From: Chitinophaga pinensis
Lineage (GTDB): Bacteria > Bacteroidota > Bacteroidia > Chitinophagales > CAIOSU01
Reading direction: 5' to 3'
NCBI GenBank assembly: GCA_945901065.1
Contig: CAMDKI010000010.1
Location: 1-64,000 of the forward strand
Length of the DNA: 64,000 nt
Both the position numbers and the translations under genes were made by a program. Below, in pieces: positions 4,799 through 63,365 of this stretch. Numbering within the stretch: the first letter of the stretch is position 1; each line of letters starts with the position of its first letter. The notes under the pieces are model-generated. The model was not told the DNA's origin. It did no database searches and worked only from the letters and a program-made list of their open reading frames with translations.

Positions 4799-4819
4799 AT
4801 TACAGGTTGCGAGTTGCAG
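4799..4819. repeat. heptad array, three units (GTTGCRR type)
   Basis: Reads ATTACAG, GTTGCGA, GTTGCAG in exact 7-base steps, 12 bases upstream of the dioxygenase start codon. It uses the same words as the arrays at 10703 and 57359. Confidence 0.5.
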
Positions 4820-4884
4820 AAACATCTGCAGCTCTTTAAAGTTAGCAAAACTTAGCTAAGTAGGAAAAGATAAGAATTTTTAGA

Positions 4885-4918
4885 AGTACCAAGTACGATT
4901 TACGATTGCGATTTGAAA
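4885..4918. repeat. heptad array, TTTACGA type (left arm)
   Basis: Units AGTACCA, AGTACGA, TTTACGA, TTGCGA (one base short) and TTTGAAA. The same words recur at 58238 and 30840. It is roughly the reverse complement of the array at 5091-5118. Confidence 0.55.
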
Positions 4919-5090
4919 TGTGACCAAGTAAGTTCCTCCCCTTTTTCAGGCATGTCATTTTGAGCGGAGCCGAAAGAGGGAGGTTAGGAGGGGGTTGCTG
5001 AGTTGAGCAATGAATTTGAGATTACATCTGATTCGAATTCAGGCATATTATTACAGCCCAATTACCTAAAACCCCCTGCACTTTTATTAG

Positions 5091-5118
5091 TTTCACATCT
5101 CTCCTTTCATATTTCGTA
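5091..5118. repeat. heptad array, TTTCATA type (right arm)
   Basis: Units TTTCACA, TCTCTCC, TTTCATA, TTTCGTA in phase, ending ten bases before the SDR start codon. It partly matches the inverse of the array at 4885-4918 and resembles the words at 6011-6080. Confidence 0.5.
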
Positions 5119-5128
5119 TTTTGACGCC

Positions 5129-5923
5129 ATGAATTTAGATCTTACCGGAAAGTATGCCCTAGTAGGTGGTGCCAGCAAGGGCATCGGCCGTGCCGTGGCC
5201 GAAGAGTTGGCACTATTGGGTGCTAACGTGATATTAATGGCCCGCTCGCAAGATTTATTGCAGCAAGCAGTAGCGGCATTGCCCAATAACGGTACCCAGC
5301 AGCACCACTATATTGTGGCCGATAATAGCCAACCACAAGCCTTACGCGAGGCGGTGGTGACATTTATGCAAGAGCACAATTTGTTTACGATACATATATT
5401 GGTTAACAACACCGGAGGCCCCGCTGGCGGTCCTGCTATTGACGCCAAGCCTGAGGAATTTGTAGGCGCTTTTACCAACCACTTGTTATGCAACCAACAC
5501 CTTGCCCAAATATTGGTGCCAGGCATGAAGGCTGCGGGTTTTGGGCGCATCATCAACATCATAAGCACAAGCGTAAAGCAGCCTATACCTGGTCTTGGCG
5601 TGAGCAATACCATCCGAGGGGCGGTGGCCAACTGGGCTAAAACCCTGTCGTTAGAGTTGGGCCAATATGGCATAACCGTAAACAACGTATTACCAGGCTT
5701 TACCGAAACTGAACGATTGGAGAGTATCATTGCAAATAAAGCCTCCAAAACAGGCAATGATGAAGCTGCAGTCATTGAACAAATGAAACAGGAAACCCCT
5801 GCCCGCCGCTTTGCCACAGCCAACGAAGTAGCCGCCGCCGCCTCCTTTTTGGCCAGCCCAGCCGCTGCTTATGTTAATGGCATTAATCTGCCAGTAGATG
5901 GTGGAAGGACTGCGAGTCTTTAA
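5129..5923 (+). CDS. divergent SDR oxidoreductase (BKR-like, no YxxxK)
   Basis: A short-chain dehydrogenase/reductase-fold protein of 264 residues. I start it at the ATG at 5129, which gives the usual MNLDLTGKYALV opening; an open frame reaches 126 bases further upstream through repeat DNA. The nucleotide-binding glycine motif is the variant GGASKGIG and the structural NNAG motif reads NNTGG. Where classical SDRs have Tyr-x3-Lys, this protein reads SNTIRGAV, so the catalytic Tyr and Lys are missing, although serines precede it (IISTSV). This matches the known FabG-like subgroup with an imperfect catalytic tetrad. A reductase function should not be assumed; substrate unknown. Confidence 0.85.
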   Translation: MNLDLTGKYALVGGASKGIGRAVAEELALLGANVILMARSQDLLQQAVAALPNNGTQQHHYIVADNSQPQALREAVVTFMQEHNLFTIHILVNNTGGPAGGPAIDAKPEEFVGAFTNHLLCNQHLAQILVPGMKAAGFGRIINIISTSVKQPIPGLGVSNTIRGAVANWAKTLSLELGQYGITVNNVLPGFTETERLESIIANKASKTGNDEAAVIEQMKQETPARRFATANEVAAAASFLASPAAAYVNGINLPVDGGRTASL

Positions 5924-5925
5924 TT

Positions 5926-5949
5926 AGATGTGAAATGGGAAATCTGAAA
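5926..5949. repeat. heptad array, AAATSTG type (left arm)
   Basis: Units AGATGTG, AAATGGG, AAATCTG and a partial fourth, beginning two bases after the SDR stop codon. They are the approximate inverse of the units at 6011-6080. Confidence 0.5.
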
Positions 5950-6010
5950 CTTTGTGTTTAAATTTTTCAAATTTGCCTTACCTAGTAGTTCGATTGGTAA
6001 TTAGAAGTTT

Positions 6011-6080
6011 CTCATTTCAAATTTTATATCTCACATTTAATTTTAACTTTCTCATTTCACATTTCATATCTCGCATTTGG
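6011..6080. repeat. heptad array, CATTTCA type, ten units in phase
   Basis: Ten consecutive 7-base units in one phase, starting CTCATTT, CAAATTT, TATATCT, CACATTT and ending CATTTCA, CATTTCA, TATCTCG, CATTTGG. The last unit contains the TTG that is the only usable start of the GYDIA kinase gene, so the array runs into the translation start. Confidence 0.6.
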
Positions 6081-7033
6081 AAACGCCTCCCCTTCGATAT
6101 TACGCCCACGGTAAATTGCTGCTTAGCGGCGAGTATGCCGTATTGGATGGTGCTTTGGCTTGGGCCGTACCAACCAAATATGGACAGTGGTTGGAAATTT
6201 TCCCTGATTCGCCGGGCATGATAGTTTGGCAGGCATTGGATAATGAAGAAATTCCTTGGTTCGAGGCTACCATAAAACTATCCGACCTTACTGTAATACA
6301 ATACAACGATTATGGTTTTGCTACCCGTTTGGCCGAAATACTACAAGCAGTACGCAAGCAAAACCCTAACTTCCTAAAAAGTAATAGGGGTATTAAGGCC
6401 GTTACCAGGTTGGAGTTTCCGCAAGATTGGGGCTTGGGCAGCAGTTCCACACTTATCAGTTTAATAGCCCAATGGGCGGAGGTGGATGCTTATAAATTGC
6501 TTGCCGATACCTTTGGCGGTTCGGGCTACGATGTTGCCTGCGCTCAAAGCGGAACGCCCATTTTATTTAACCTGGAACAAGGTAATCCCGTTTGGGAAGC
6601 CGTAAGCCATTTACCACCGTTTAAAGAACATGTTTGTTTCGTTTATCTCGGCAAAAAGCAAAACAGCCGTGAGGGCATTGCCCGCTATAGAAAGTTGGAC
6701 ATTGATTATCCTAAGTTGGCATCAGAAATAACCCTTTGCACCATAACGATGCAAGCTGCGCAACGATTAGACACCTTGCAACAAAGTATGGAGTGGCACG
6801 AGAATTTGATAAGCAGCGCACTAGAGCTGGAAAAAGTAAAGGATAGGTTGTTCTCTGATTTCAAAGGTTCCGTTAAATCGCTAGGCGCTTGGGGTGGTGA
6901 TTTTGTAATGGCAGTAAGCCCCCTAACCACCGCCGAGGTGATGGCTTACTTTGAAGCCAAAGGCTACCATACCTTGCTTACTTGGGATGAATTGGTATTG
7001 GATGGGAATTGCATTTCGCCCAACCCGAGTTAA
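6077..7033 (+). CDS. GYDIA-family GHMP kinase
   Basis: A GHMP-superfamily small-molecule kinase of 318 residues, of the Bacteroidota family named after its GYDIA motif (GYDVA here, within GSGYDVA at 148-154). The ATP-binding GLGSSS loop is at 119-124, and the N-terminus has the superfamily start HGKLLLSGEYAVLDG (11-25). No ATG lies before this motif in frame, so I use the TTG at 6077, which sits inside a heptad repeat. It lies 68 bases upstream of the diphosphomevalonate decarboxylase and mevalonate kinase genes. That context makes a mevalonate-pathway phosphorylation, possibly of phosphomevalonate, an attractive but unproven role. Confidence 0.85.
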   Translation: METPPLRYYAHGKLLLSGEYAVLDGALAWAVPTKYGQWLEIFPDSPGMIVWQALDNEEIPWFEATIKLSDLTVIQYNDYGFATRLAEILQAVRKQNPNFLKSNRGIKAVTRLEFPQDWGLGSSSTLISLIAQWAEVDAYKLLADTFGGSGYDVACAQSGTPILFNLEQGNPVWEAVSHLPPFKEHVCFVYLGKKQNSREGIARYRKLDIDYPKLASEITLCTITMQAAQRLDTLQQSMEWHENLISSALELEKVKDRLFSDFKGSVKSLGAWGGDFVMAVSPLTTAEVMAYFEAKGYHTLLTWDELVLDGNCISPNPS

Positions 7034-7081
7034 AACTCCTTAAACCAAAAACCTTTTTATCGGTTATCCAGCCAATGGTGT

Positions 7082-7089
7082 TATTTTTG
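7082..7089 (+). promoter_or_regulatory. Bacteroidota -7 element before mvaD
   Basis: TATTTTTG fits the TAnnTTTG -7 consensus and lies 12 bases before the mvaD start. No clear TTG is seen at the expected -33 position. Confidence 0.4.
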
Positions 7090-7101
7090 TACTAGATTAC
7101 C

Positions 7102-8184
7102 ATGAATCAATCCAGCATGCAAACCAACAATACCCCAACTGCCGCGGGCAATACCGCTTGGCGTTGCCCATCAAATATTGCCTTAGTAAAATATTGGGGT
7201 AAGAAGGGAAAGCAGATACCGAGCAACCCTAGCATCAGTTTTACGCTGAACGATGCCCATACCGATATGCACTTAGCTTGGCAGTCAAAAAGCACAAGGG
7301 GAATAGCATTAGAGTTTCTTTTCGAAGGGCATGTAAATGAAGCTTTCGGCAATAAAATCGTTAAGTTTTTAGAGAGCATTTTGGTTGATATGCCGTTTTT
7401 GGAGCAATATCGCTTGCGCATATCATCAATCAATTCATTCCCACACTCTACGGGTATTGCTTCTTCGGCCAGCAGCATGAGTGCTTTGGCCATGTGCCTT
7501 TGCAGCATGGAGGCCGAGCTGAAAGGCCTGCCACAAGATGACGCTTTCTATCAGCGCGCTTCGCATTTTGCACGCTTGGCCAGCGGTAGCGCATGCCGCT
7601 CGGTATACGGGGGCTTGGTTCAGTGGGGCGCAACTGCCGCAATGGCAGGTAGCAGCGACTTGTATGGTACACCCCTGAAAGACAGCGAAATACACCCCGA
7701 ATTTAAGTGCTATAAAGATGCTGTACTGATTGTAAGCCGCAAGGAGAAAGCCGTTAGCAGTCGCGCGGGCCATGCCCTTATGGACGGCCACCCCTACGCT
7801 CAGGCCCGATATGCGGATGCCGATAAAAATTTGGCACAATTATTAACAGCTATACGCGAGGGCGATGTGGACACCTTTATCCGCTTAGTGGAGCACGAGG
7901 CGCTTTCTTTGCATGCGTTAATGATGGTCTCAAACCCTTCGGTGGTATTGTTTAAGCCCAATACTTGGGAAATTATTAACCGATTGAGAACATTTAGGCA
8001 AGAAACGGGTTGTAATGTGTGTTTCACGCTCGATGCAGGGCCCAATGTGCATATATTGTACCCTGAAAGCGCAAGCGAGGCGGTGGAAACATTTATAAAA
8101 GAAGAACTTGTTGTATATTGCGAGGGCAATTACTGGATTGCTGACCATGTTGGCAGCGGCCCTTTAAAATTGGGACATGACTAA
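7102..8184 (+). CDS. mvaD: diphosphomevalonate decarboxylase
   Basis: Converts mevalonate diphosphate to isopentenyl diphosphate with ATP, the last step of the mevalonate pathway (EC 4.1.1.33). The 360-residue protein contains the family signature NIALVKYWGKK (25-35), the ATP-binding HSTGIASSASS loop and the downstream GLVQWG segment. It overlaps the mevalonate kinase gene by eight bases (the ATG lies before this stop), so the two are translationally coupled. A GYDIA-family kinase precedes it. HMG-CoA synthase and reductase are not in the window. Confidence 0.95.
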   Translation: MNQSSMQTNNTPTAAGNTAWRCPSNIALVKYWGKKGKQIPSNPSISFTLNDAHTDMHLAWQSKSTRGIALEFLFEGHVNEAFGNKIVKFLESILVDMPFLEQYRLRISSINSFPHSTGIASSASSMSALAMCLCSMEAELKGLPQDDAFYQRASHFARLASGSACRSVYGGLVQWGATAAMAGSSDLYGTPLKDSEIHPEFKCYKDAVLIVSRKEKAVSSRAGHALMDGHPYAQARYADADKNLAQLLTAIREGDVDTFIRLVEHEALSLHALMMVSNPSVVLFKPNTWEIINRLRTFRQETGCNVCFTLDAGPNVHILYPESASEAVETFIKEELVVYCEGNYWIADHVGSGPLKLGHD

Positions 8185-9136
8185 GGTAAAACGTGAGCGT
8201 GAAGGCTCCTTTAATTCTAAGATACTGTTGTTCGGTGAATACGGTATCATCCAAAACTCCATGGGATTATCTATCCCTTACGATAGTTTTAAAGGTAACT
8301 TAGCTTTTAAAAAGGAAGGACAGCCATCGCCTGATAGTACCACCGAGAGCAATGCATCCCTGCTGCGCTTTGCAACCTACTTAAACACTTTACAAGACAG
8401 CGGTGAGTTACATGCCAAAATGGACATGGAGCGCCTGTTTGCAGATATTGAGCGTGGCATCTATTTCGAATCGAGCATACCACAGGGCTTCGGCGTGGGT
8501 AGCTCGGGCGCGTTGGTAGCCGCCTTGTATGATGAATACGCCATCAATAAAGTAGAGGCGAACGATATTAACAAAAAAGGCTTGAAAGAGCTTAAAAAGG
8601 TATTCTCTCAAATGGAGTCTTATTTCCATGGCACTAGCTCTGGTATGGATCCATTGATTTGCTATATCGATTTGCCAGTGCTCATTAAGAGCAAAACCAA
8701 TTTGGATACCGTGGTATTGCCTGAAGAAAAGGCCGGCCAAGGTGCTATCTTCTTGATTGATACTGGTCGCCCGGGCCGCACACAGCCCTTGGTGCAGTAC
8801 TTTTTAGAGAAATGCCAAGAAAAGGACTTTGTAGACATGTGCCGCGAGAAGTTTATTCCTTACAACGACCAGTGTATTAAAGATTTCTTGAAAGGCGAGA
8901 CCAAATCGCTTTTTGCCAACCTGTACCACCTCTCTTACTTTTTGCTAGAGAACCTAGAACCCATGGTGCCGAAGCTTTTCCGCGGCGTATGGAAACGCGG
9001 TTTGGACAGCGGTGCTTATTACCTCAAGCTTTGCGGCTCCGGTGGCGGTGGTTTCATCCTCGGCTTTACCGAAGACCTTGAAAAGGCCAAAGAACAGCTC
9101 GGCGAGCACCAGATTAAGGTGATTAAGCGGTTTTGA
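8177..9136 (+). CDS. mvk: mevalonate kinase-type GHMP kinase
   Basis: Phosphorylates mevalonate in the mevalonate pathway (EC 2.7.1.36). The 319 residues show the N-terminal KILLFGEYGII segment, the ATP loop IPQGFGVGSSGAL, the GTSSGMDP segment carrying the catalytic-region aspartate, and the C-terminal GSGGGG motif 3. The start overlaps the end of mvaD by eight bases. The stop is TGA, evidence that this organism uses the standard code. Its close similarity to other GHMP kinases leaves some uncertainty about exact substrate, but position next to mvaD supports the assignment. Confidence 0.88.
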   Translation: MTKVKREREGSFNSKILLFGEYGIIQNSMGLSIPYDSFKGNLAFKKEGQPSPDSTTESNASLLRFATYLNTLQDSGELHAKMDMERLFADIERGIYFESSIPQGFGVGSSGALVAALYDEYAINKVEANDINKKGLKELKKVFSQMESYFHGTSSGMDPLICYIDLPVLIKSKTNLDTVVLPEEKAGQGAIFLIDTGRPGRTQPLVQYFLEKCQEKDFVDMCREKFIPYNDQCIKDFLKGETKSLFANLYHLSYFLLENLEPMVPKLFRGVWKRGLDSGAYYLKLCGSGGGGFILGFTEDLEKAKEQLGEHQIKVIKRF

Positions 9137-9142
9137 GCGTTT

Positions 9143-9177
9143 AATTTAAAATTCAAAATTTAAGATTGAAAATTGGG
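9143..9177. repeat. heptad array, AATTYAA type
   Basis: Five in-phase units AATTTAA, AATTCAA, AATTTAA, GATTGAA, AATTGGG, starting seven bases after the mevalonate kinase stop. Confidence 0.6.
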
Positions 9178-9257
9178 TCTTCCTTTTGTAAGTGGGTTTT
9201 AATTTTTTATTGCCACTAGGCTTCGAAAACACTATCATTCAACCCATTTCCCATTTT

Positions 9258-9292
9258 ATCCGTCGACTGTCGTCCGTGGACAGTGGACTAAT
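9258..9292. repeat. heptad array, GTCGACT/GTGGACA type
   Basis: Units ATCCGTC, GACTGTC, GTCCGTG, GACAGTG, GACTAAT in exact 7-base steps between mvk and the aldehyde dehydrogenase. The same words appear at 11376 and, inverted, at 56121. Confidence 0.6.
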
Positions 9293-9331
9293 CAAAAAAC
9301 CCTAATTTAGCGGCTTAAATCCCCTTTTTCA

Positions 9332-10696: not shown

Positions 10697-10702
10697 TTTT
10701 TG

Positions 10703-10730
10703 GTTGCGAGTTACGGGTTACGAGTTGCGG
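10703..10730. repeat. heptad array, GTTRCGR type (left arm of inverted pair)
   Basis: Four perfect units GTTGCGA, GTTACGG, GTTACGA, GTTGCGG, beginning six bases after the aldehyde dehydrogenase stop. It is inverted relative to 10814-10841, so the two arms could form a stem of about 28 bp with an 83-base loop between convergent genes. Confidence 0.7.
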
Positions 10731-10813
10731 GTTTTAGTAGGGTTATATTCTATATAATGCTATTTTCACTTTTTCCAAAAGGCTTTACTTTTCCATCTGA
10801 AATTTAAATTTTC

Positions 10814-10841
10814 AACTCGCAACCCGTAACTCGCAACCCGC
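10814..10841. repeat. heptad array, AACYCGY type (right arm of inverted pair)
   Basis: Units AACTCGC, AACCCGT, AACTCGC, AACCCGC in phase, the inverse of 10703-10730. The array ends nine bases before the end of the GNAT gene. Confidence 0.7.
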
Positions 10842-10850
10842 AACAACCAC

Positions 10851-11282: not shown

Positions 11283-11289
11283 GATATAG

Positions 11290-11323
11290 CAAAGGTAGGT
11301 AGCAAAAACTATTTTTGTATCAA
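11290..11323 (-). promoter_or_regulatory. promoter of the GNAT gene
   Basis: On the minus strand TACCTTTG (11290-11297) matches the -7 consensus TAnnTTTG. A TTG at 11321-11323 is a possible -33 element with a 23-base spacer. The start codon follows seven bases downstream. Confidence 0.5.
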
Positions 11324-11375
11324 GGAAATCAGGGCAGCTCTAGCCTATACAGTTTCACTATAAACTAACCTTTTT

Positions 11376-11403
11376 ATCCGTCGACAGTGGACTGTCGACT
11401 AAA
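11376..11403. repeat. heptad array, GTCGACT/GTGGACA type
   Basis: Units ATCCGTC, GACAGTG, GACTGTC, GACTAAA in phase. The last unit overlaps the folA stop codon. It closely resembles the array at 9258-9292. Confidence 0.6.
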
Positions 11404-11902
11404 TCTCAATCCTATCCCACACCTCAAACGTAAAGGCATATTTGTGCCGTTCGTCGGTGTCGTGTAGTGCTGTGCTTACCAAAGTCCATTCATCAGGGCT
11501 TAGCACTGGAAAATGCGCATCCGCATCAGGGAAAGTGGCATGAACACGGGTAAGGTATACGCGGTTGGTTTCAGGTAGGGCTTGGCGGTAAATTTCGGCA
11601 CCCCCTATTACCATAATCTCATCGGTGCCGGTGTCGCGGGCCATGATTAGGGCACTATCAATATCACCAACTACTTCAGCACCCGGTGCTTCAAAATCAG
11701 TTTGGCGGGTAATGACAATATTTAAGCGCTTCGGCAAGGCTTTGCCCAGTGCCTGAAACGTTTTGCGGCCCATCACTATCGGGTGGCCTATGGTGGTATC
11801 CTTAAAAAACTTGAAATCGTCGGGCAAGTGCCACAGCAGGTCGTTGTGTTTGCCTATGGCATTGTCTTCGGCGGCGGCCACTATCATGCTTACTATGGTC
11901 AT
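11399..11902 (-). CDS. folA: dihydrofolate reductase
   Basis: Reduces dihydrofolate to tetrahydrofolate with NADPH (EC 1.5.1.3). The 167-residue protein has the family start [23 protein letters not shown] with the catalytic acid in LPDDFKFF, the [11 protein letters not shown] nucleotide-binding segment, and [12 protein letters not shown]. It overlaps thyA by four bases (ATGA), so the pair forms the classic thymidylate cycle operon in which ThyA makes the dihydrofolate that FolA recycles. Its stop codon lies within a heptad array. Confidence 0.97.
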
Positions 11903-12702
11903 ACGCTTACGGCCGCTTTTATGTGAGGGTGTGGGTCGTAGCCCACCAGTTCAAAGTCTTCGTAAGTAAACCCGAAAATATCCTTTATCTCGGGGTTCAG
12001 TTTCATTATCGGGAAAGGCTTCGGCTCGCGGGTAAGCTGCAAGCGCGCCTGCTCTAAGTGGTTGCTGTACAAGTGTGCATCGCCAAAGGTATGCACAAAC
12101 TCGCCCGGCTGTAGGCCCGTAACCTGTGCCACCATCAAGGTAAGCAAGGCATAGCTGGCAATGTTAAAGGGCACGCCAAGGAACACATCGGCACTGCGCT
12201 GGTAGAGCTGGCAACTCAGTTTGCCATCGGCCACATAAAACTGAAACAGGCAATGGCACGGCGGCAAGGCCATGTTTTCAATATCGGCCACGTTCCAGGC
12301 GCTCACAATGTGGCGGCGACTGTCGGGCTTGGTTTTTATTTGCTCTATTAGTTGGGTTATCTGGTCAATGTGGCGGCCATCGGCGGTAGGCCAACTGCGC
12401 CATTGGTAGCCATATACTGGGCCAAGGTTTCCGTTTTCGTCGGCCCACTCGTCCCATATCGCCACCTTGTTATCTTTCAGGTATTTAATGTTGGTATCAC
12501 CCGAAAGAAACCACAACAGCTCGTGCACAATAGAGCGCAGGTGCAGCTTTTTGGTAGTCAGTACAGGGAATCCCTCCGACAAATCGAAGCGGATTTGGTG
12601 ACCGAAAATGCTATAAGTGCCCGTACCGGTGCGGTCTTCCTTTTTGGCGCCTTTGTCCAGTATCTGTTGCAGTAAATCGAGGTATTGTTGTTCGGCGTGC
12701 AT
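11899..12702 (-). CDS. thyA: thymidylate synthase
   Basis: Methylates dUMP to dTMP using methylene-tetrahydrofolate (EC 2.1.1.45). I start it at the ATG at 12702 ([11 protein letters not shown]), giving 267 residues, close to the usual 264; an upstream in-frame ATG would add 16 residues made largely of heptad-repeat DNA. The catalytic cysteine lies in [12 protein letters not shown], the substrate-binding RRHIVSAWN and the [18 protein letters not shown] region are intact, and it ends in the expected short aliphatic tail. It is coupled to folA by a four-base overlap. Confidence 0.97.
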
Positions 12703-12721
12703 TGGGGTAAAGTTACTAAAC

Positions 12722-12756
12722 AGTATCAAGTATTGAGTATCAAGTATCAAGTATTT
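12722..12756. repeat. heptad array, AGTATCA type, five units
   Basis: Units AGTATCA, AGTATTG, AGTATCA, AGTATCA, AGTATTT in exact phase, 20 bases upstream of the thyA start. The same AGTATCA word appears at 30840 and 54007. Confidence 0.7.
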
Positions 12757-12839
12757 TGATGAGACATTTGTTACTAAACTCCAATCCTACAATTCTGAAA
12801 ACTATCTAACGCTTAGCGTAATTCTGATTCAGACATACT

Positions 12840-14475: not shown

Positions 14476-14506
14476 ACTTGTACTATGCAAACAAGACTCC
14501 TTAGTT

Positions 14507-14541
14507 GTCTTGTGTCTTGTGTCTTGTGTCTTGTATCAATA
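14507..14541. repeat. heptad array, GTCTTGT, five units
   Basis: Four identical GTCTTGT units followed by ATCAATA, in phase. On the minus strand the array starts at the rsgA stop codon (14536-14538), so it forms the 3' flank of that transcript. Confidence 0.7.
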
Positions 14542-29862: not shown

Positions 29863-29885
29863 TTTGCAACGAAAAATTGTTCGGT

Positions 29886-29906
29886 GGTTATTGGTTATTA
29901 GTTGAT
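29886..29906. repeat. heptad array, GGTTATT type (left arm)
   Basis: Units GGTTATT, GGTTATT, AGTTGAT in phase. It is inverted relative to the array at 29954. Confidence 0.5.
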
Positions 29907-29953: not shown

Positions 29954-29988
29954 CCAATTAACTAATAACAAGTAAACCAATAACTAGT
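29954..29988. repeat. heptad array, AACCAAT type (right arm)
   Basis: Units CCAATTA, ACTAATA, ACAAGTA, AACCAAT, AACTAGT in phase, ending three bases from the stop codon of the MBL hydrolase gene. It is the inverse of 29886-29906. Confidence 0.55.
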
Positions 29989-30839: not shown

Positions 30840-30895
30840 AGTATCAAGTATCAAGTATGATGTACGATGTACGATGTACGATGTACGATGTACGA
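30840..30895. repeat. heptad array, AGTATCA then TGTACGA, eight units
   Basis: Two AGTATCA and one AGTATGA units pass without a phase break into five identical TGTACGA units, so one array shows two word families joined by a transitional unit. It lies eight bases upstream of the MBL hydrolase start. Confidence 0.75.
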
Positions 30896-54006: not shown

Positions 54007-54020
54007 AGTATTGAGTATCA
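54007..54020. repeat. short heptad run, AGTATCA type
   Basis: AGTATTG and AGTATCA in phase, followed by AG, nine bases upstream of the membrane protein start. The same words are at 12722. Confidence 0.45.
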
Positions 54021-54832: not shown

Positions 54833-56122
54833 ATGAAGTACGAACGGATAAACCCTGAGTTGTTTAGCTACAACCGTGAGCGTTTTAAAGCACAAATGAA
54901 AAGCAACTCCTTGGTTGTGTTTCACTCTGCCGAGTTGATGCCTATGAGCGCCGATGCTACTTTCCCTTTTCGTCAGAACCCTGATATTTTTTATTTAACG
55001 GGCATCGACCAAGAGGAAACCATGTTGATTTTGTTTCCGGATGCACCTGTTGAGGCTTATAAGGAAATGCTGTTTATTCGTAAAACCAACGAAGTGATAG
55101 CTGTTTGGGAAGGGGAGAAGCTAACCGTTGAGCAGGCCAAAGAAATTTCGGGCATTAAGAACATATACATGGCCGATGAGTTTGATACGCTGCTCAAGGT
55201 ACTCATGAACCATGTTGAGAACGTTTACTTGAACCTGAACGAGCACGACCGAAGCAGCAACGGGTTACCATATAAAGACTTACGTTTTGCAAACGAGTTA
55301 CGCGAGCGCTTTCCGTTGCATAATTATAAGCGAGCGGCCCCTATTATGGAGTCGCTTCGGGTTATCAAATCAGACATTGAGATTGCGCTATTGCAGCACT
55401 CGTGCAACATTACCGAGAAGGCTTTTCGCAGGGTATTGAAGTTTGTGAAGCCCGGCGTGAAAGAGTACGAAATTGAGGCAGAAATCATGCATGAGTTTTT
55501 GCGAAACGCTGCCACCGATTATGCTTATTACCCCATTATTGCTAGCGGGAAGGATAGTTGCATACTGCACTACGATAAAAACAACAAAGTTTGCCAAGAT
55601 GGCGAAGTACTGCTATTTGATTTTGGATGCAAATATGCTGGCTATGATAGCGACATGAGCCGCACGGTGCCTGTAAATGGCCGATTTACAAAGCGCCAAA
55701 AAGACGTTTACAATGCAGTGCTGCGCACCATGCGCCACGCTACCTCAATGCTTAGGCCAGGTGTGCTGATTGAGGAGTACCACAAAGAGGTTGGCAAATT
55801 TATTACTAGCGAAATGATAGGTCTAGGTTTGTTTACCAAAGCCGAAGTAGATGCGCAAGACCCTAAAAAGCCATTGTATAAAAAGTACTTTATGCACGGC
55901 ACCTCGCACTTTTTAGGACTTAACACCCACGATGTAGGCGATAGATATAAAGCACTGAAAGCAGGCATGGTACTTACTTGCGAACCGGGTATTTACATTC
56001 CTGCGGAGCGCATTGGTATCCGTTTGGAGAACGATATTCTATTGAGCCACGAAAATCCGATTGATTTAATGGCCAATATACCGGTTGAAGCCGAAGAGAT
56101 TGAGGAATTGATGAACAGTTAG
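54833..56122 (+). CDS. pepP: aminopeptidase P (Xaa-Pro aminopeptidase)
   Basis: A metallopeptidase of 429 residues that removes N-terminal residues preceding proline. I start it at MKYERINPELFSYNRERF (54833); the longer frame from 54743 adds a hydrophobic stretch that could be mistaken for a signal but is mostly promoter DNA. An N-terminal aminopeptidase P domain (about 1-140) is followed by the pita-bread domain with metal ligands in DFGCKYAGYDSDMSR, HGTSHFLGLNTHDVG, TCEPGIYIP and the final IRLENDIL. Likely cytoplasmic. Heptads begin at its stop codon. Confidence 0.93.
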   Translation: MKYERINPELFSYNRERFKAQMKSNSLVVFHSAELMPMSADATFPFRQNPDIFYLTGIDQEETMLILFPDAPVEAYKEMLFIRKTNEVIAVWEGEKLTVEQAKEISGIKNIYMADEFDTLLKVLMNHVENVYLNLNEHDRSSNGLPYKDLRFANELRERFPLHNYKRAAPIMESLRVIKSDIEIALLQHSCNITEKAFRRVLKFVKPGVKEYEIEAEIMHEFLRNAATDYAYYPIIASGKDSCILHYDKNNKVCQDGEVLLFDFGCKYAGYDSDMSRTVPVNGRFTKRQKDVYNAVLRTMRHATSMLRPGVLIEEYHKEVGKFITSEMIGLGLFTKAEVDAQDPKKPLYKKYFMHGTSHFLGLNTHDVGDRYKALKAGMVLTCEPGIYIPAERIGIRLENDILLSHENPIDLMANIPVEAEEIEELMNS

Positions 56123-56148
56123 TCCACGGTCAACGGTCCACGGACGAA
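56121..56148. repeat. heptad array, GGTCCAC type
   Basis: Units AGTCCAC, GGTCAAC, GGTCCAC, GGACGAA in phase. The first overlaps the aminopeptidase stop codon. In inverse it matches the words at 9258-9292. Confidence 0.6.
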
Positions 56149-56553: not shown

Positions 56554-56563
56554 TACGTAGGGT

Positions 56564-57355: not shown

Positions 57356-57358
57356 TGT

Positions 57359-57386
57359 GAGTATAGTTGCGGGTTACGAGTTCATA
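57359..57386. repeat. heptad array, GTTRCGR type (left arm of inverted pair)
   Basis: Units GAGTATA, GTTGCGG, GTTACGA, GTTCATA in phase, four bases upstream of the inositol monophosphatase start. It is the inverse of 57468-57502. Confidence 0.6.
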
Positions 57387-57467
57387 TAATAATGCACCTC
57401 AAAATTGGCACTTTAAAACTAAGCATTAGTAACAATCATTCTGTAAATCCTTTACTTTCTGTAGAAA

Positions 57468-57502
57468 AACTCGCAACCCGTAACTAGTAACTCGCAACTA
57501 AA
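57468..57502. repeat. heptad array, AACYCGY type (right arm of inverted pair)
   Basis: Units AACTCGC, AACCCGT, AACTAGT, AACTCGC, AACTAAA in phase, ending two bases from the PPK2 stop. It uses the same words as 10814-10841, 47 kb away. Confidence 0.7.
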
Positions 57503-57504
57503 AA

Positions 57505-58233
57505 TCAAGCCGGGTACTTCAATCCCAATCCTTTTAGGTAGTCGCGGATGATGATAGCTACCTGCTCGTTTCGGTACCAGCGCTTATCGGCAGGTATAAT
57601 GTGCCAAGGTTTGTCTTGACAACCGTTAATAATCTGTTCATACGTTTGGCGGTAGTGTTTCCATTTGGCATCGCTTATTTCATCGGCATGGTTGTATTTC
57701 CACTTTTTATCGGGCAAGGTTTTCCGTTCGGCAATGCGCTCGGCCTGCTCTTCGCGAGAAATTTGAAGAAAGAACTTGAGCACATGTATGTTGTTCAGGT
57801 CTAAGTTTTCTTCAACGGCGTTTATCAGCGTATATCGCTGGGCAATAACCGCTTTGCTATGGGTGGCCTCAACGGTGGGTACTAGAATATCTTCGTAATA
57901 CGACCGATTGAATACCTGTATCATTCTTTTGGCCGGAAAATGCGGATAGATGCGCCAAAGAAAATCGTGCTGCAGCTCTAGTTCAGTGGGTTTTTTAAAT
58001 GATTTAACCTGCACGCCCATCGGGTTCATGGCAGTCATTACGTGGCGGCAAACGCCATCTTTGCCCGAGGCATCCATACCCTGCAAAATAATAAGCAACC
58101 CAAACCTTCCATCGGCATAAAACACGTTCTGAAGCTCAAACAACTCTTCACGCAGTTCTTTCAGATGCTCTTTGCTGGCATGCTTGTGCGCCCCATCAGG
58201 CGGAAGGCTCGATATGTTGCTAAGGTCAATCAT
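57505..58233 (-). CDS. polyphosphate kinase 2 family protein
   Basis: A polyphosphate-dependent nucleotide kinase of 242 residues. The Walker A motif is GMDASGKDG (about 49-57), the lid/Walker B region contains FNRSYYEDILV, and the segments RIYPHFPAKRMIQVFNRS and KWKYNHADEISDAKWKHY are characteristic of PPK2. These enzymes phosphorylate AMP or ADP (or GMP/GDP) with polyphosphate; the length fits a single-domain class but I cannot assign class by eye. It is monocistronic, with a long heptad region upstream of its start. Confidence 0.93.
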   Translation of the reverse strand: MIDLSNISSLPPDGAHKHASKEHLKELREELFELQNVFYADGRFGLLIILQGMDASGKDGVCRHVMTAMNPMGVQVKSFKKPTELELQHDFLWRIYPHFPAKRMIQVFNRSYYEDILVPTVEATHSKAVIAQRYTLINAVEENLDLNNIHVLKFFLQISREEQAERIAERKTLPDKKWKYNHADEISDAKWKHYRQTYEQIINGCQDKPWHIIPADKRWYRNEQVAIIIRDYLKGLGLKYPA

Positions 58234-58237
58234 TCCA

Positions 58238-58330
58238 TTTACGATTTACGAAGTATGATTTACGATTGCTTGATGCACGAAGTACAATCTGCTTGAAGTA
58301 CGATGTGCAATGTATGAGGTACGATTTAAA
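58238..58330. repeat. long heptad array, TTTACGA/AGTACGA type
   Basis: About twelve units beginning TTTACGA, TTTACGA, AGTATGA, TTTACGA and continuing with TGCACGA, AGTACAA, AGTACGA, TGTGCAA, TGTATGA, GGTACGA. Two units are 8 and 9 bases long (TTGCTTGA, TCTGCTTGA). It starts five bases upstream of the PPK2 start codon. A further GCTTGAT-type run follows at about 58380-58412. Confidence 0.65.
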
Positions 58331-58447
58331 GGTAGCAATTGTATTGCTGATTTGTATTGGCCACCAATTGTCATTAAGGTCTTGATGCTTGATACTCAAA
58401 TCTTGCTACTAAAAGTCCTATATTAGATGTTATAACATACACTCGCT

Positions 58448-58840
58448 ATGAACCACATCCTGCCCCTGTTTTCACGATTGCTCCTAGTGCCGCTCTTTGT
58501 ATTCTCGGCCATCAAAAAGCTTGATAACCCAACCGGAACGGTAGAAACCATGCGCTCGGCGGGTATCAATTTCCAAACCGAGTTGTTTATGTATGGCTCC
58601 ATTGCCTTTTTGCTTATCGGCAGTTTATTGTTGCTATTGGGTTACAAAACCCGCGTAGGTGCCTTCATGCTACTGTTGTTTATTGTGCCCACCACCTTGC
58701 TCTTTCATTGGGATTTTACAGATATTACCCAAACCATAGCCCTGTACAAAAATGCCGCCATTGTATCTGCACTGCTGCTGCTTATGGCCCACGGCCCCGG
58801 TGGCGTGAGTATAGATGCCAAACTAAACAACGGCCACTGA
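58448..58840 (+). CDS. DoxX-family membrane protein
   Basis: A 130-residue inner-membrane protein with four hydrophobic segments and the DoxX opening LPLFSRLLLVPLFVFSAIKKL. A central LLLGYKTRVGAFMLLLF and a C-terminal FKNAAIVSALLLL-like segment (here YKNAAIVSALLLL) match the family. DoxX proteins have varied proposed roles, including redox processes; none is shown here. The SDR gene starts one base after its stop, so they form an operon. Confidence 0.9.
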   Translation: MNHILPLFSRLLLVPLFVFSAIKKLDNPTGTVETMRSAGINFQTELFMYGSIAFLLIGSLLLLLGYKTRVGAFMLLLFIVPTTLLFHWDFTDITQTIALYKNAAIVSALLLLMAHGPGGVSIDAKLNNGH

Positions 58841-58841
58841 T

Positions 58842-59636
58842 ATGGGCAGTTACACTAACCAAACCGTTTGGATAACGGGTGCCTCATCGGGCATTGGCGA
58901 GGCACTGGCTTACGAGTTTGCAAAGCAAGGTGCCAACCTAATTATCTCTGCGCGCCGGGCCGATGAACTGCAACGGGTGCAAGCGCTTTGCGCTGACCCG
59001 AGCAAAGTACAAATACTTACCCTCGATTTAGCCGCTCACGATACCTTTGCGGCTAAAACCGCCGAGGCATTGGCCTTTTTTGGGCAAATAGATGTTATGG
59101 TGCACAATGCGGGCATAAGCCAACGCTCGTTGGCGAAGGATACCAGCCTTGAGGTGGACCGCAAACTGATGGACGTGAACTACTTGGGCACCGTGGGCCT
59201 TACCAAGGCTTTGTTGCCCCACTTTTTACAACGAAAGGCAGGTCAGTTGGTCGTTATAACTAGTTTGGTAGGCATTATTGGCTCGCCGTTGCGCTCGGGC
59301 TATGCGGCTAGCAAACACGCGCTGCACGGCTTTTTTGATAGCCTAAGGGCCGAGCTCGCTAACTACAATGTAGGGGTTACCCTTATTTGCCCGGGCTATA
59401 TTGCCACCAACGTATCGGTAAATGCCCTTACTGGCGATGGCAGCAAGCAGAACAGCATGGACACCAAAACCGCTGCAGGCCTCCAACCCGACGAGGCTGC
59501 CCGGCAAATGGTGTGGGCCATCAACAACAGAAAGCTGGAAGTATATATCGGCAAAGGCGAAACTTGGGCCATATACCTCAAACGCTACTTGCCCAGCCTC
59601 TTTGCCAAGGTGTTGGCTAAGGCTAAGGTTACTTGA
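58842..59636 (+). CDS. SDR family oxidoreductase (classical)
   Basis: A classical short-chain dehydrogenase of 264 residues with a full catalytic set: TGASSGIG cofactor loop (about 12-19), NAG in HNAGIS, catalytic Ser in ITSLVGIIG and YAASK (Tyr and Lys). The C-terminal region with LKRYLPSLFAKVLAKAKV resembles the DHRS7-like branch. NADP preference is suggested by ARRADEL after the second strand. Substrate unknown. It is coupled to the DoxX gene. It contrasts with the tetrad-less SDR at 5129. Confidence 0.93.
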   Translation: MGSYTNQTVWITGASSGIGEALAYEFAKQGANLIISARRADELQRVQALCADPSKVQILTLDLAAHDTFAAKTAEALAFFGQIDVMVHNAGISQRSLAKDTSLEVDRKLMDVNYLGTVGLTKALLPHFLQRKAGQLVVITSLVGIIGSPLRSGYAASKHALHGFFDSLRAELANYNVGVTLICPGYIATNVSVNALTGDGSKQNSMDTKTAAGLQPDEAARQMVWAINNRKLEVYIGKGETWAIYLKRYLPSLFAKVLAKAKVT

Positions 59637-59862
59637 GTTGGATTATGCTCCTATATTGCACTCACACAACCTGGGTTTTGCTATCAATCTTTTTATTCAC
59701 CAAGATATTCCCTATCTGGCGCAAATATTTACTTGTGCCTAGCCATGTGCAAGTATTTACTTGCGTAATGCTAAACTTAAAATTGTCCTTATCCCACCCC
59801 ACTACCCCCATTTCCCCAAAACAACTTAACTTTAGCGGTAGCAACCACGCAACCCTGCCGCT

Positions 59863-62289
59863 ATGAAGTTTATTAAGTTTTTGGTGCCTAACCTTTTGGC
59901 CTTGGTGTTGGCCTTTGCCCTCAATGGCGAGTTGACCATTGGCGATAAAAATTTGCCACCGATGGGTCCGCTGTTGAGCCCGTTTACGGGTTTCTGGCAA
60001 AATGCCGAATCGAAGGAAATTACTTGGAACCCCGATGTGAAACTAGATGGGTTAGCGGGCAGCGTAACCGTGCAATACGATGCACGCCGCGTGCCCCACG
60101 TGTTTGCCCAAAACGATGAAGACCTATACTATATGCAGGGCTACCTCACGGCCCAAGACCGCCTCTGGGAAATGGATTTCATCACCCGGTATGCCAGCGG
60201 CCGCATCAGTGAGCTGGTGGGCGAGCGCGGCCTAAAGCTGGACCGCACCAACCGCCGCATGGGTATAGCCTATGCCGCCGAGCAAGCCGCGGCCCACATA
60301 AACGATAACCCCACTAGTAAAATGGTGCTGGAGCGCTACACGGCGGGCGTAAATGCCTATATAGCCAGCCTGAGCGATGGCTCGTTGCCGTTGGAGTATA
60401 AGATAATGAATTACAAGCCTGAGCTGTGGTCGGCATACAAAACCACGCTGCTATTGAAGTATATGGCCAACAATCTTTCGGGCTGGGACAAAGACTTTGA
60501 ATATACCAATGCCTACAATCTGTTTGGCAAAGAAATAACCGACCTACTATACCCCGACCGCCCAGCTGGCATCGACCCGATTATACCCGCGGGCACGCCT
60601 TACAATTTCCCGGTTGAGGCGTTGGATACCCCGAAATATACCATCGCCAAGGGCGTATTCATCAGTTCTGAATTTGATGGCCCCATTAGGGAGAATTTGG
60701 GCAGCAACAACTGGGCCGTTAGCGGTAGCCGCACCAATACGGGTTTCCCGCTATTGGCCAGCGACCCGCACTTGGGCCTTAACCTACCGTCTATTTGGTA
60801 CGAAATGCAACTTACCTCGCCAAGCGTAAACGTATATGGTGCCACGTTGCCGGGTTCGCCGTGCGTTATAATCGGCTTTAATGCCGATGCTGCTTGGGGC
60901 GTAACCAATGCCGGCATGGATGTGCGCGATTGGTACACCATTAAACTACTGTCTAACGACAAGTACCTGCACGATGGCGCCGAGAAACCGATAGTGTACC
61001 GCTACGATACCATTCGTGTAAAAGGTGCCGCCGATTTTATAGATACCATTAGGTTTACGCACTTCGGCCCAGTGGTATACGATGAGCGCTTTGACCAAAA
61101 CGGCAACACCACGCCACTGGCCCTGCGCTGGACGGCGCACGATGCCTCGGATGAGTTGATGACGTTTTACGGTCTCAACCGCGCCAAAACCCACAACGAC
61201 TATTTAAAGGCCTTGAACTACTACTATTGCCCGGGGCAAAACTTTGTATTTGCTAGCCACGCTGGCGATATTGCCATCAGGCAACAGGGCCATTTCCCGA
61301 AAAAGTGGCCAGAGCAAGGTCGGTTTATCATGGATGGCAGCACTTCGGACTTTGAGTGGCAGGGCTTTATCCCTTTCGACCAAAACCCGCAAGTGAAGAA
61401 CCCACCGCGTGGCTGGGTAAGCTCTGCCAACCAACACCCCGCCGATAGCACCTACCCATACTACTTTTGTGGCTATTATGAGTACGACCGCAGCCGCCGT
61501 ATTAATGAGTTACTTGGCGAAGACCGCAAGTATACGGTTGAGGATATGAAGCAATTCCAGAACGACAACTATGCCTATTATGCCAAAGATTTGGTGCCGT
61601 TTTTAATGGAAAACGTGAACGACCTGAACCTTAACCCCGGCCAAAAAGAAGTGTGGGAACTACTGAAAAACTGGGACTATAACTATACCGCTGATAGCAG
61701 GGCGGCAACCGCTTTTGAAATGATATATGATACGCTAATGGTGCTGGTTTGGGACGAACTGCAACCTTACGACGAAAAAGGCCTAGATGCACCAACCGGA
61801 TACGTAACCATACAAGTAATGAAGGCGCACCCAGAGCATGCACTAATGGATTATAAGGACACCCGCCCGATTGAAGATGCCGCCGACATGCTAAACATGG
61901 CCTTTTTGGCCGGTGCCGAAAAGTACCAAGACTGGAAAGCCAACAATGGCAAAGAACCAGAATGGTGGCAATATAAAAATACTACGGTGGCGCACTTGGT
62001 GCCGTTCTTCAAGGCATTTAGCAGGCCAATGATACACATGGGTGGTAATAAGCACATATTAAATGCCACCGATGGCACGCACGGTGCTTCGTGGCGCATG
62101 GTGGTAAGCTTAGAAGATGAAGTGAAGGCGTGGGGCGTATACCCAGGCGGTGCCAGCGGCAACCCGGGCAGCTACTATTACGATGCCTATGTAGATACCT
62201 GGGCCGCAGGCGAATACTACGAATTGTTGTTTTTGAAGGCTCCAGTGCAAAACGAGACCATTCAGTTTACCCAAACCTTTAGCAAGTAA
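59863..62289 (+). CDS. penicillin acylase family protein
   Basis: An Ntn-hydrolase precursor of 808 residues. An N-terminal hydrophobic segment (FLVPNLLALVLAFAL) suggests export. The alpha-chain region has VTVQYDARRVPHVFAQNDEDLYYMQGYLTAQDRLWEMD, split here only by reading order, and the autocatalytic beta-chain start is the Ser in GSNNWAVSG near residue 280, giving a linker as in acylases of this fold. These enzymes cleave amides such as acyl-homoserine lactones or beta-lactam side chains; the natural substrate is unknown. A small membrane protein gene follows by three bases. Confidence 0.93.
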   Translation: MKFIKFLVPNLLALVLAFALNGELTIGDKNLPPMGPLLSPFTGFWQNAESKEITWNPDVKLDGLAGSVTVQYDARRVPHVFAQNDEDLYYMQGYLTAQDRLWEMDFITRYASGRISELVGERGLKLDRTNRRMGIAYAAEQAAAHINDNPTSKMVLERYTAGVNAYIASLSDGSLPLEYKIMNYKPELWSAYKTTLLLKYMANNLSGWDKDFEYTNAYNLFGKEITDLLYPDRPAGIDPIIPAGTPYNFPVEALDTPKYTIAKGVFISSEFDGPIRENLGSNNWAVSGSRTNTGFPLLASDPHLGLNLPSIWYEMQLTSPSVNVYGATLPGSPCVIIGFNADAAWGVTNAGMDVRDWYTIKLLSNDKYLHDGAEKPIVYRYDTIRVKGAADFIDTIRFTHFGPVVYDERFDQNGNTTPLALRWTAHDASDELMTFYGLNRAKTHNDYLKALNYYYCPGQNFVFASHAGDIAIRQQGHFPKKWPEQGRFIMDGSTSDFEWQGFIPFDQNPQVKNPPRGWVSSANQHPADSTYPYYFCGYYEYDRSRRINELLGEDRKYTVEDMKQFQNDNYAYYAKDLVPFLMENVNDLNLNPGQKEVWELLKNWDYNYTADSRAATAFEMIYDTLMVLVWDELQPYDEKGLDAPTGYVTIQVMKAHPEHALMDYKDTRPIEDAADMLNMAFLAGAEKYQDWKANNGKEPEWWQYKNTTVAHLVPFFKAFSRPMIHMGGNKHILNATDGTHGASWRMVVSLEDEVKAWGVYPGGASGNPGSYYYDAYVDTWAAGEYYELLFLKAPVQNETIQFTQTFSK

Positions 62290-62292
62290 GCC

Positions 62293-62646
62293 ATGAAATT
62301 TATCATCGTAACATTGGCAATAGCCGCAGTAGCATTTGGGGTACAATTGGTACTCCCGTGGTGGAGCTTGGCGTTAGTGGCCTTTCTCATCGGTTTCGTG
62401 AGCAACCTTTCGGGTTGGGCGGCGCTGGCTGCGGGTTTTTTGGGCTCGGGTAGCGTGTGGGCATTGTATGCCTTTTTGCTCAATAGCGGCAACAACTCCC
62501 TTTTGTCGCACAAAATGGCCGCCTTGTTTGGCGTGCCTAGCTCGGCACTACTCATGGTGCCTATTTCGGCGCTCATTGCGGCTTTGTTGGGCGGTTTTGC
62601 CGCCGCAGGTGGCCGAAACCTGAAACAGTTAGTGACCAGTAAGTAG
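62293..62646 (+). CDS. small hydrophobic membrane protein
   Basis: A 117-residue protein with three or four membrane segments (about 3-18, 27-55, 78-102) and a short basic C-terminus (GGRNLKQLVTSK). It begins three bases after the acylase stop and is therefore probably co-transcribed with it. No family is recognised. Function unknown. Confidence 0.72.
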   Translation: MKFIIVTLAIAAVAFGVQLVLPWWSLALVAFLIGFVSNLSGWAALAAGFLGSGSVWALYAFLLNSGNNSLLSHKMAALFGVPSSALLMVPISALIAALLGGFAAAGGRNLKQLVTSK

Positions 62647-62781
62647 CCCCGTTGTTACTTTTTTTGTTTTTTAAGCCTAGTAGGTACATTTAGGTATAGC
62701 CATTGCAGTGGTTTCATTTGCTATTTTGCTATATTAGTGTACCCTTAAATTATTCAACCCGCTATAACCCCATTTATTGCC

Positions 62782-63246
62782 ATGAAAAGCCGCTATGCTT
62801 TGCTGTGCCTGTTGGCATTTGCCGTTATTACTGTTTCCGTGTCAAGTTGTGTCAAAATCCAGAATAAGGTACTCTTGAAAGGTACGTGGGAGTTGGTGAA
62901 TTACAAGTTTGATACGCTATCGTTAAACTACATGACCGTGATATTGCCGGGCTACACACAAGGTGGCGATTGCTGCCGCTACATGATTGACTTTAAGGAC
63001 AATGATGTGGTAACGGGCACTTACTACGTAAACGATACCGTTAACTACACGGTAGACGGCACATGGAGTTTGGATGAAAAAAGCACTTTAGTAATTGACT
63101 TGGATAATTATGTGGATGGCACTTTCGATATTGAGCGTGAAAACCGCACCACATACTACCTCACCACCGACTCGTGCTCAGTAGAGTTTGCACCAGGCTT
63201 TTTTATCTCCTACCCAGTTACGCTCGATATTAAGCGTAGGTTTTAA
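62782..63246 (+). CDS. lipocalin-like lipoprotein
   Basis: A predicted lipoprotein of 154 residues; the signal MKSRYALLCLLAFAVITVS ends in the lipobox VSSC (Cys23). The mature part starts with LLKGTWELVNYKFD, the GxW motif of lipocalin-like domains, followed by beta strands such as YMIDFKDNDVVTGTYYVND and DGTWSLDEKSTLVIDLD. Many Bacteroidota encode such small lipocalin-like lipoproteins; ligands are unknown. A pair of cysteines (GGDCCRY) lies in a loop. Confidence 0.78.
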   Translation: MKSRYALLCLLAFAVITVSVSSCVKIQNKVLLKGTWELVNYKFDTLSLNYMTVILPGYTQGGDCCRYMIDFKDNDVVTGTYYVNDTVNYTVDGTWSLDEKSTLVIDLDNYVDGTFDIERENRTTYYLTTDSCSVEFAPGFFISYPVTLDIKRRF

Positions 63247-63323
63247 TCCATTTACATCAATTCCCTATTTAACCTAATAAGCGTTGCCTAATAGGAAGTC
63301 ATGCAATTTCCGCAACTTTGCCT

Positions 63324-63365
63324 TATCAATTTTCAAATTATCTCATTTTCAAATTACCAAATTGA
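63324..63365. repeat. heptad array, TTTTCAA type
   Basis: Six in-phase units starting TATCAAT, TTTCAAA, TTATCTC and ending AAATTGA. The final unit contains the TTG start of pssA. Confidence 0.45.

What the first reader, a model, noticed from the sequence alone, without database searches (positions are those of the whole stretch)
4799..63365. Window-wide family of intergenic arrays with a strict 7-bp period
At least fifteen gaps carry tandem 7-base units: about 4799, 4885, 5091, 5926, 6011, 9143, 9258, 10703, 10814, 11376, 12722, 14507, 29886, 29954, 30840, 54007, 56121, 57359, 57468, 58238 and 63324. The word changes from site to site but falls into a few families (AGTATCA/TGTACGA; GTTRCGR; GTCGACT/GTGGACA; TTTACGA; CATTTCA; AATTYAA; GTCTTGT; GGTTATT), and the same word recurs tens of kb apart. 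Only the period is constant, which suggests one mechanism that copies or selects a 7-base step. Heptameric repeats of comparable kind are known in cyanobacteria; I know of none described in this form for Bacteroidota. Possible roles are slippage-driven junk, RNA 3' structure, or protein binding.
Basis: partly seen in the sequence, partly recalled or inferred. Interest (0 to 1): 0.82.

Follow-up and report, generated by a model that had tools for sequence, protein, structure and literature searches.

The report
Seven-base repeats bracketing bacterial intergenic gaps
About a quarter of the spaces between genes in this bacterium are bracketed by short 7-base repeats that point inward from both neighbouring genes, and between two sister species whole bracketed blocks are exchanged for blocks with different repeat words. 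This points to an unidentified process that makes or rebuilds the DNA between genes, and its signature recurs in several other phyla.

Summary
The window's gaps contain 13 lag-7 arrays against 0.23 expected. In an 864 kb sample of the genome the excess is at lags 7, 14 and 21, with a smaller 8-bp class. Weaker listed sites are only two units or degenerate.

1. Polarity. Each word points inward from the gap edge, on the G-rich strand, at both 3' and 5' gene ends (GTTRCGR 30:1). Opposite arms form inverted pairs, often of one word.
2. In a sister species (flanking genes 95% identical) occupied gaps stay occupied (odds ratio 46), but 9 of 29 share no word; usually the whole arm-spacer-arm block is replaced.
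3. Variable letters in the two arms are uncorrelated, so the arms are not copies of each other.
4. Two sister genera lack the arrays. Chloroflexota, Planctomycetota and Desulfobacterales stretches show period-7 arrays with the same polarity and other words.

Prior art covers single words in Xanthomonas, Nostoc, Beggiatoaceae and a few Bacteroidetes. The multi-word lexicon and word exchange appear new.

My best mechanism, inferred only, is breakage within a gap, addition of heptads to both 3' ends, and rejoining. No enzyme was found: no Ku in the genus, and no RVT_1 match in four of its five genomes. Gene-orientation data argue against terminators.

The parts
10703..10733 (+). left arm, GTTRCGR x4.4, of the bracketed block between convergent genes
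   Evidence: lag-7 score 11.5; replaced by GTCCATT/GTCGATA in the sister species
10813..10844 (-). right arm, GTTRCGR x4.5 on the - strand; inverted partner of 10703-10733
   Evidence: score 12.5; the block folds as a hairpin, z -8.65
57366..57382 (+). left arm, GTTRCGR x2.4
   Evidence: hairpin with 57468-57499, z -3.2
57468..57499 (-). right arm, GTTRCGR; swapped to AATTYAA in the sister species
   Evidence: score 10
29885..29903 (+). left arm, GGTTATT
   Evidence: score 9.5; hairpin z -5.3
29959..29988 (-). right arm, degenerate GGTTATT (AACTAATAACAAGTAAACCAATAAC)
   Evidence: same in the sister species
5928..5949 (+). left arm, TGTGAAATGGGAAAT; GATGACA in the sister species
   Evidence: score 7.5
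6048..6072 (-). right arm, CATTTCA; TTATCATC in the sister species
   Evidence: score 10.5
9143..9175 (+). left arm, AATTYAA; GGTTACG plus a 1.3 kb interior in the sister species
   Evidence: score 13.5
9262..9288 (.). GTSGACW, a self-complementary heptad near the right end of the same gap
   Evidence: score 7.5
11380..11400 (.). GTSGACW array; GGACCAT/CGACCAT in the sister species
   Evidence: score 6.5
12722..12754 (+). AGTATCA x4.7, overlapping the end of ORF 11899-12750; the sister species carries a 4.2 kb insert just inside it
   Evidence: score 16
14506..14537 (-). ACAAGAC (GTCTTGT on +) x4.1; about two units more in the sister species
   Evidence: score 22.5
30840..30895 (+). AGTATCA passing in phase into TGTACGA
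   Evidence: score 41.5; unit numbers differ in the sister species
4884..4907 (+). AAGTACC/AAGTACGA/TTTACGA array
   Evidence: score 9.5; kept in the sister species
4806..4817 (+). GTTGCGA, two units
   Evidence: score 5
54007..54018 (+). AGTATTG/AGTATCA, two units; GTCTTGT array in the sister species
56122..56143 (+). GTCCACG/GTCAACG array at a stop codon
   Evidence: score 10
58237..58267 (+). ATTTACG array, continuing in degenerate form to about 58325
   Evidence: score 9; kept in the sister species

Best explanation
These are gap-bracketing heptad arrays: the two edges of a replaceable block between functional DNA segments. SHOWN: period 7 (minority 8); the word points inward from each edge, so each gene block looks capped by G-rich repeats running 5' to 3' away from it; the two arms often share a word but not their variable letters; blocks at the same site are replaced, with their words, between sister species. 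INFERRED: a double-strand break falls in a gap, the ends are trimmed back to functional DNA, a process carrying one word at a time adds heptads to both 3' ends (as telomere healing does), and the ends are rejoined with filler or captured DNA. The inverted arms can form a hairpin, which makes the site break-prone again; this would explain persistent sites with changing words. The adding enzyme and its template are unknown.
For: Period. Polarity irrespective of gene direction: GTTRCGR 30 inward: 1 outward (16 at 5' ends, 14 at 3' ends), GTACGAN 30:2, AATTTGAA 10:1. The assignment of word orientation was made from the same data, but consistency within a word is not circular. Inverted pairs 32 in the IN arrangement, 0 OUT; 18 of 32 of one word. 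No correlation of variable letters between arms in 20 pairs (p = 0.16; edge register 0.467 against 0.462 permuted) and four near-equal unit variants, GTTACGG 39, GTTGCGA 34, GTTGCGG 31, GTTACGA 27. Sister species: array in both 29, only one 14 and 6, neither 132 (odds ratio 46, p = 2e-17); 9 of 29 share no heptamer. Replaced blocks run arm to arm, and the array starts at or within a few bp of the conserved boundary. Array gaps have more length changes >100 bp (13/63 against 7/118, p = 0.005). Some blocks fold as strong hairpins (z -8.65, -5.3, -4.2). Other lineages: GTTRCGR inward 29:7 at 3' ends and 21:6 at 5' ends; inward G>C 13:1, 16:2 and 15:1 in Saprospiraceae, Chloroflexaceae and a planctomycete with other words.
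Against: No RVT_1 match in G000, G001, G002 or G004 and no Ku in any genome of the genus, so no known adding or joining enzyme was found; the own genome is 91% complete and G001 97%. In the few exact junctions that I read by eye, microhomology between flank and first unit is at most one base, less than telomerase-type annealing needs. 14 of 32 arm pairs carry different words. At C2_108698 the array changed while the adjacent spacer stayed alignable. Other blocks do not fold better than shuffles (z -0.8, -1.7). No break or addition event was observed.
Confidence: 0.3

Rival explanations
1. Mobile cassettes with heptad terminal inverted repeats, moved by a transposase such as a Y1 (RAYT-like) enzyme; inward polarity is then ordinary TIR polarity.
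For: Discrete inverted-arm blocks with edges at the conserved boundary. Y1_Tnp genes occur in the genus, and two lie in gaps edged by GTTRCGR arrays (L187, L188).
Against: Spacers are mostly unrelated between copies and between orthologous sites. Clean presence/absence, the usual pattern for transposition, is rarer than word exchange. The Y1 genes sit among their own GC-rich REP hairpins, and heptads lie only at the outer gene edges. Y1_Tnp is equally common in relatives without the arrays (42 of 61 genomes).
Confidence: 0.18
2. Arrays under selection as hairpins or as DNA-binding sites (nucleoid or insulator protein with a 7-bp step), grown by slippage; selection keeps the site while the word may change.
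For: Site persistence, strong hairpins in some gaps, unit gain and loss by multiples of seven, position at gene edges.
Against: Many words per genome; variable letters not paired between arms; several arrays have no partner and no fold; arrays absent in sister genera.
Confidence: 0.2
3. Allelic exchange: gap variants with different words circulate in the population and are swapped by homologous recombination in the flanking genes; the words arose long ago by slippage.
For: Whole blocks differ between alleles while flanks stay 90-99% identical.
Against: Does not explain the origin, polarity or same-word arms; no third allele source was found, and the spacer of 10734-10801 gave no match in G001 or G003.
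Confidence: 0.15
4. Neutral slippage junk that accumulates where selection allows it.
For: Arrays are intergenic and change in unit number.
Against: Lag 7 exceeds 6, 8 and 9 strongly; fixed polarity in several phyla; wholesale word exchange; absence from sister genera with similar gap DNA.
Confidence: 0.08
5. Bidirectional transcription terminators or Rho (rut-like) insulators.
For: Outward strand richer in YC dinucleotides (142 against 59 arrays); some hairpins.
Against: No dependence on gene orientation: arrays in 17.5% of tandem, 19.1% of divergent and 16.1% of convergent gaps. A frequent word (GTATCAA) lacks YC on the strand that matters.
Confidence: 0.06

Closest known systems
GGGAATC (Xanthomonas) and GGGGAYT (Nostoc) heptameric intergenic repeats, PMC4692102
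   Same: Heptameric tandem arrays, intergenic; inverted 'convergent' pairs (70 in Xcc); within 0-50 bp of ORFs, on the coding strand downstream and the non-coding strand upstream, which is the inward polarity seen here.
   Different: One G-tract word per genome proposed as quadruplex-forming, and loci more conserved than controls; here several words without G tracts, exchanged between sister species.
TAACTGA direct repeats of Beggiatoaceae, Cyanobacteria and some Bacteroidetes, PMC4679880
   Same: Intergenic heptads close to gene ends, some with other heptamers in the same gap; orientation upstream and downstream of ORFs agrees with inward polarity.
   Different: One word, mostly upstream of start codons in Beggiatoaceae; interpreted as translational regulation.
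Heptanucleotide elements of Geobacter metallireducens (GGGACCG, MTYCTGA), PMC2700814
   Same: Multicopy tandem heptanucleotides, mainly intergenic.
   Different: Described as regulatory elements; polarity and turnover not analysed.
REP/RAYT systems (Y1 transposases)
   Same: Intergenic inverted repeats; present in this genome.
   Different: GC-rich hairpins near their own Y1 gene; heptad arrays are a separate layer at gene edges.
Telomere healing, interstitial telomeric repeats and DRT10 tandem-repeat synthesis (PMC12632851)
   Same: Works like: short repeats with a G-rich 3' strand, head-to-head at fusion points; a bacterial RT can make tandem repeats from an RNA template (9-nt in Eco3).
   Different: No RVT_1 match in most genomes of this genus; DRT10 products are not known to be integrated.

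Membership tests
Heptameric intergenic SSRs (STRR-like; Xanthomonas/Nostoc type) | tandem 7-bp units, over-represented at that length only | tested here: met
   with a minority 8-bp class
Heptameric intergenic SSRs (STRR-like; Xanthomonas/Nostoc type) | intergenic, near ORFs, fixed strand relative to the nearest ORF end | tested here: met
   against PMC4692102
Heptameric intergenic SSRs (STRR-like; Xanthomonas/Nostoc type) | a single G-tract word able to form quadruplexes | tested here: not met
   several words, the commonest (GTTRCGR) without G tracts
MITE | terminal inverted repeats | tested here: met
   arms imperfect and unequal
MITE | shared internal sequence among copies | tested here: not met
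   spacers mostly unrelated
MITE | target-site duplication | not tested
   no empty-site alleles clean enough were found
REP/RAYT | repeat flanks a Y1 transposase gene as its own hairpin | tested here: not met
   Y1 genes carry other GC-rich hairpins; heptads only at gene edges
Telomerase-like or DRT10 product | reverse transcriptase gene in every array-bearing genome | tested here: not met
   no RVT_1 in G000, G001, G002, G004; other RT models not run
Telomerase-like or DRT10 product | RNA template with permuted repeat | not tested
   no candidate RNA sought; Rfam finds only tRNAs in the window
Transcription terminator | enrichment at gene 3' ends | tested here: not met
   (5' ends as often as 3')

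The most novel reading that the evidence does not exclude
Bacteria in several phyla possess an enzyme that caps broken chromosome ends with lineage-specific heptad repeats before rejoining, so that intergenic regions are littered with head-to-head, telomere-like scars that turn over between species.
Probability: 0.12. Interest if true: 0.95.

Novelty: new variant of a known kind. Interest (0 to 1): 0.72.

Why it matters
Heptameric intergenic repeats have been noted piecemeal in cyanobacteria, Xanthomonas, Beggiatoa and Geobacter, each with its own functional story. Here one genus carries a lexicon of words obeying a single geometric rule, the sister species exchange words at fixed sites, and sampled stretches of Chloroflexota, Planctomycetota and Desulfobacterales genomes obey the same rule. 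That turns scattered curiosities into one testable process of how spaces between genes are broken, refilled or maintained, and gives it markers: period, polarity, same-word arms, word exchange. If a repeat-adding activity exists, it would be a new DNA-end transaction in bacteria.

Tried and rejected
- Y1/RAYT as mobiliser: first suggested by G001 C2:178217 lying between arrays, then weakened, because RAYTs carry their own REPs.
- Telomerase or DRT reverse transcriptase: RVT_1 absent from four of five genus genomes.
- Ku end joining: absent from the genus.
- Snap-back copying of one arm from the other: letters uncorrelated (20 pairs, so limited power).
- Rho/rut insulators and terminators: no gene-orientation effect.
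- Integron attC: considered, but GTTRCGR does not match the GTTRRRY core as I recall it (from memory, not tested).
- A lexicon shared between phyla: GTATCAA x3 found in only 1 of 30 genomes holding GTTRCGR x4.
- GTTRCGR as a strikingly enriched word in the phylum at large: 17 of 395 Bacteroidota genomes, reversed control in about 4-5, so the genus is exceptional.
- ORF-calling bias on polarity: rechecked with ATG-only ORFs; 3' ends, where it cannot act, still give 29:7.
- G>C inward as a plain property of gap edges: array-free 3' ends 118:112, but 5' ends 198:94, so only the 3' ends and the word-level tests are clean.
- Mapping L055 to the own genome gave no syntenic region.

Full report
What was checked. 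The window is contig 10 of a 3.3 Mb, 17-contig genome assembly of 90.7% completeness. I used 864 kb of the own genome (window plus 2 x 400 kb), about 700 kb of G003, 400 kb of G001, 200 kb each of two sister genera, and short stretches of four distant genomes. Genes were called as long non-overlapping ORFs, so gap edges are approximate at 5' ends.

The observation. The lag-7 signal is real and intergenic. In the window 13 arrays are found against 0.23 expected. In the sample the excess sits at lags 7, 14 and 21. An 8-bp class exists at about a quarter of the frequency. TRF agrees for the strongest arrays. Of the 21 listed sites about nine are weak, but several of these are inverted partners of strong arrays.

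Anatomy. Words fall into about eight main families in this genome. Read from the nearest gap edge inward, each family has one orientation: GTTRCGR 30 to 1, GTACGAN 30 to 2, GTATCAA 10 to 2, AATTTGAA 10 to 1. GGTTATT is the exception in that count (2 to 4). Arrays lie mostly within 0-50 bp of an ORF, at 5' and 3' ends alike. When two arrays occupy a gap they are inverted: 32 pairs in the inward arrangement, none outward; 18 of 32 have the same word. A lexicon-free test agrees for this genome, G003, G070 and G061, but not clearly for G001. The two arms of 20 GTTRCGR pairs do not share their variable letters, so one arm is not a copy of the other. The two R positions are used almost evenly. Some blocks fold into strong hairpins, others do not.

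Evolution. Across 181 orthologous gaps between G000 and G003 (flank identity 95%), gaps without arrays align end to end (median identity 0.96). Occupied gaps stay occupied (29 both, 14 and 6 single, 132 neither; odds ratio 46). In 20 of 29 the word is kept, often with changed unit number (for example W14506, 32 to 45 bp). In 9 of 29 no heptamer is shared; lower-scoring cases add more. Examples: W10697-10850 GTTRCGR on both arms against GGTCCAT/GTCGATA; W57356-57504 GTTRCGR against AATTYAA; C1_264133 GTTRCGR against GTATCAA. The replaced tract runs from arm to arm, leaving promoters and terminators outside intact (C1_264133, C2_116818). Spacers are mostly unrelated; C2_108698 is an exception in which the array changed beside a kept spacer. 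Array gaps also carry more length changes >100 bp (13/63 against 7/118).

Distribution. All four same-genus relatives have GTTRCGR arrays. Two sister genera have 2 and 0 lag-7 arrays per 200 kb, against roughly 20 in this genus. GTTRCGR x4 occurs in at least 116 genome stretches from many phyla, with the same polarity (3' ends 29:7, 5' ends 21:6). A Chloroflexaceae, a planctomycete, a Saprospiraceae and a Desulfobacterales genome show lag-7 dominance with their own words and inward G>C. These genomes were chosen because they hold GTTRCGR, so they do not measure prevalence. In 395 Bacteroidota genomes the word is rare (17).

Function and mechanism. Arrays do not depend on gene orientation, which argues against terminators. 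Known enzymes that could add or join ends were not found. Y1 transposases belong to separate REP systems. The geometry, G-rich strand 5' to 3' away from the conserved segment on both sides and the same word on both arms, is what addition to both 3' ends of a break followed by joining would leave. I judge this the best single account but only at 0.3, because no enzyme, template or event was seen and junction microhomology looks absent in the few cases read by eye.

Known relatives. Heptameric repeats with the same strand rule were described for Xanthomonas and Nostoc (PMC4692102) and, less explicitly, for TAACTGA in Beggiatoaceae and five Bacteroidetes (PMC4679880); Geobacter has heptanucleotide elements (PMC2700814). 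I therefore file this as a new variant of a known kind: the multi-word lexicon, word exchange at persistent sites and independence of the arms are the new parts, as far as the searched library shows.

Confidence. Period, polarity and word exchange: high. Generality across phyla: moderate (few genomes, short stretches). Mechanism: low.

Noticed in passing
window 18-243: A 95-bp unit carrying a tRNA-like sequence is repeated 2.4 times at 98% identity; Rfam calls one complete tRNA at 215-288.
   Followed up: no
L192-L206: Several different RAYT-like Y1 genes in the genus, each surrounded by its own GC-rich REP hairpin (e.g. CCTCGCTGGAAGCGAGG, GGAACTAAGTTCC, CGATGGGC..GCCCATCG).
   Followed up: partly
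G003 C38:10498-11562 and C38:13361-13667 (L234): A REP-like element (TATGTCATACTGAGTCTCGCCTAAGGCGA..) sits inside GTTRCGR-type arrays at the same phase in two gaps of G003 and is absent in G000, as if arrays were landing sites.
   Followed up: no
window 12751-12839 against G003 C51:25626-29849: A 4.2 kb insertion in the sister species lies just inside an AGTATCA array; window 12783-12836 is itself a dispersed element in G001.
   Followed up: no
window 4925-5018: TGTCATTTTGAGCGGAGCCGAAAGAGG-type dispersed element with several copies in G003.
   Followed up: no
window 30840-30895; G000 C2:99865-99926: Arrays in which one word passes into another in the same 7-bp register (AGTATCA to TGTACGA; GTTRCGR to TTTACGA), suggesting words can also change by point mutation and spread.
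   Followed up: partly
L253-L257, L067, L084 (Chloroflexaceae): Extremely dense lag-7 arrays with many words (AAGTATG, GCGTGCT, AGGGGTT, AGTAACG): 48 arrays in 10.8 kb of gaps, a better system for study than this genome.
   Followed up: partly
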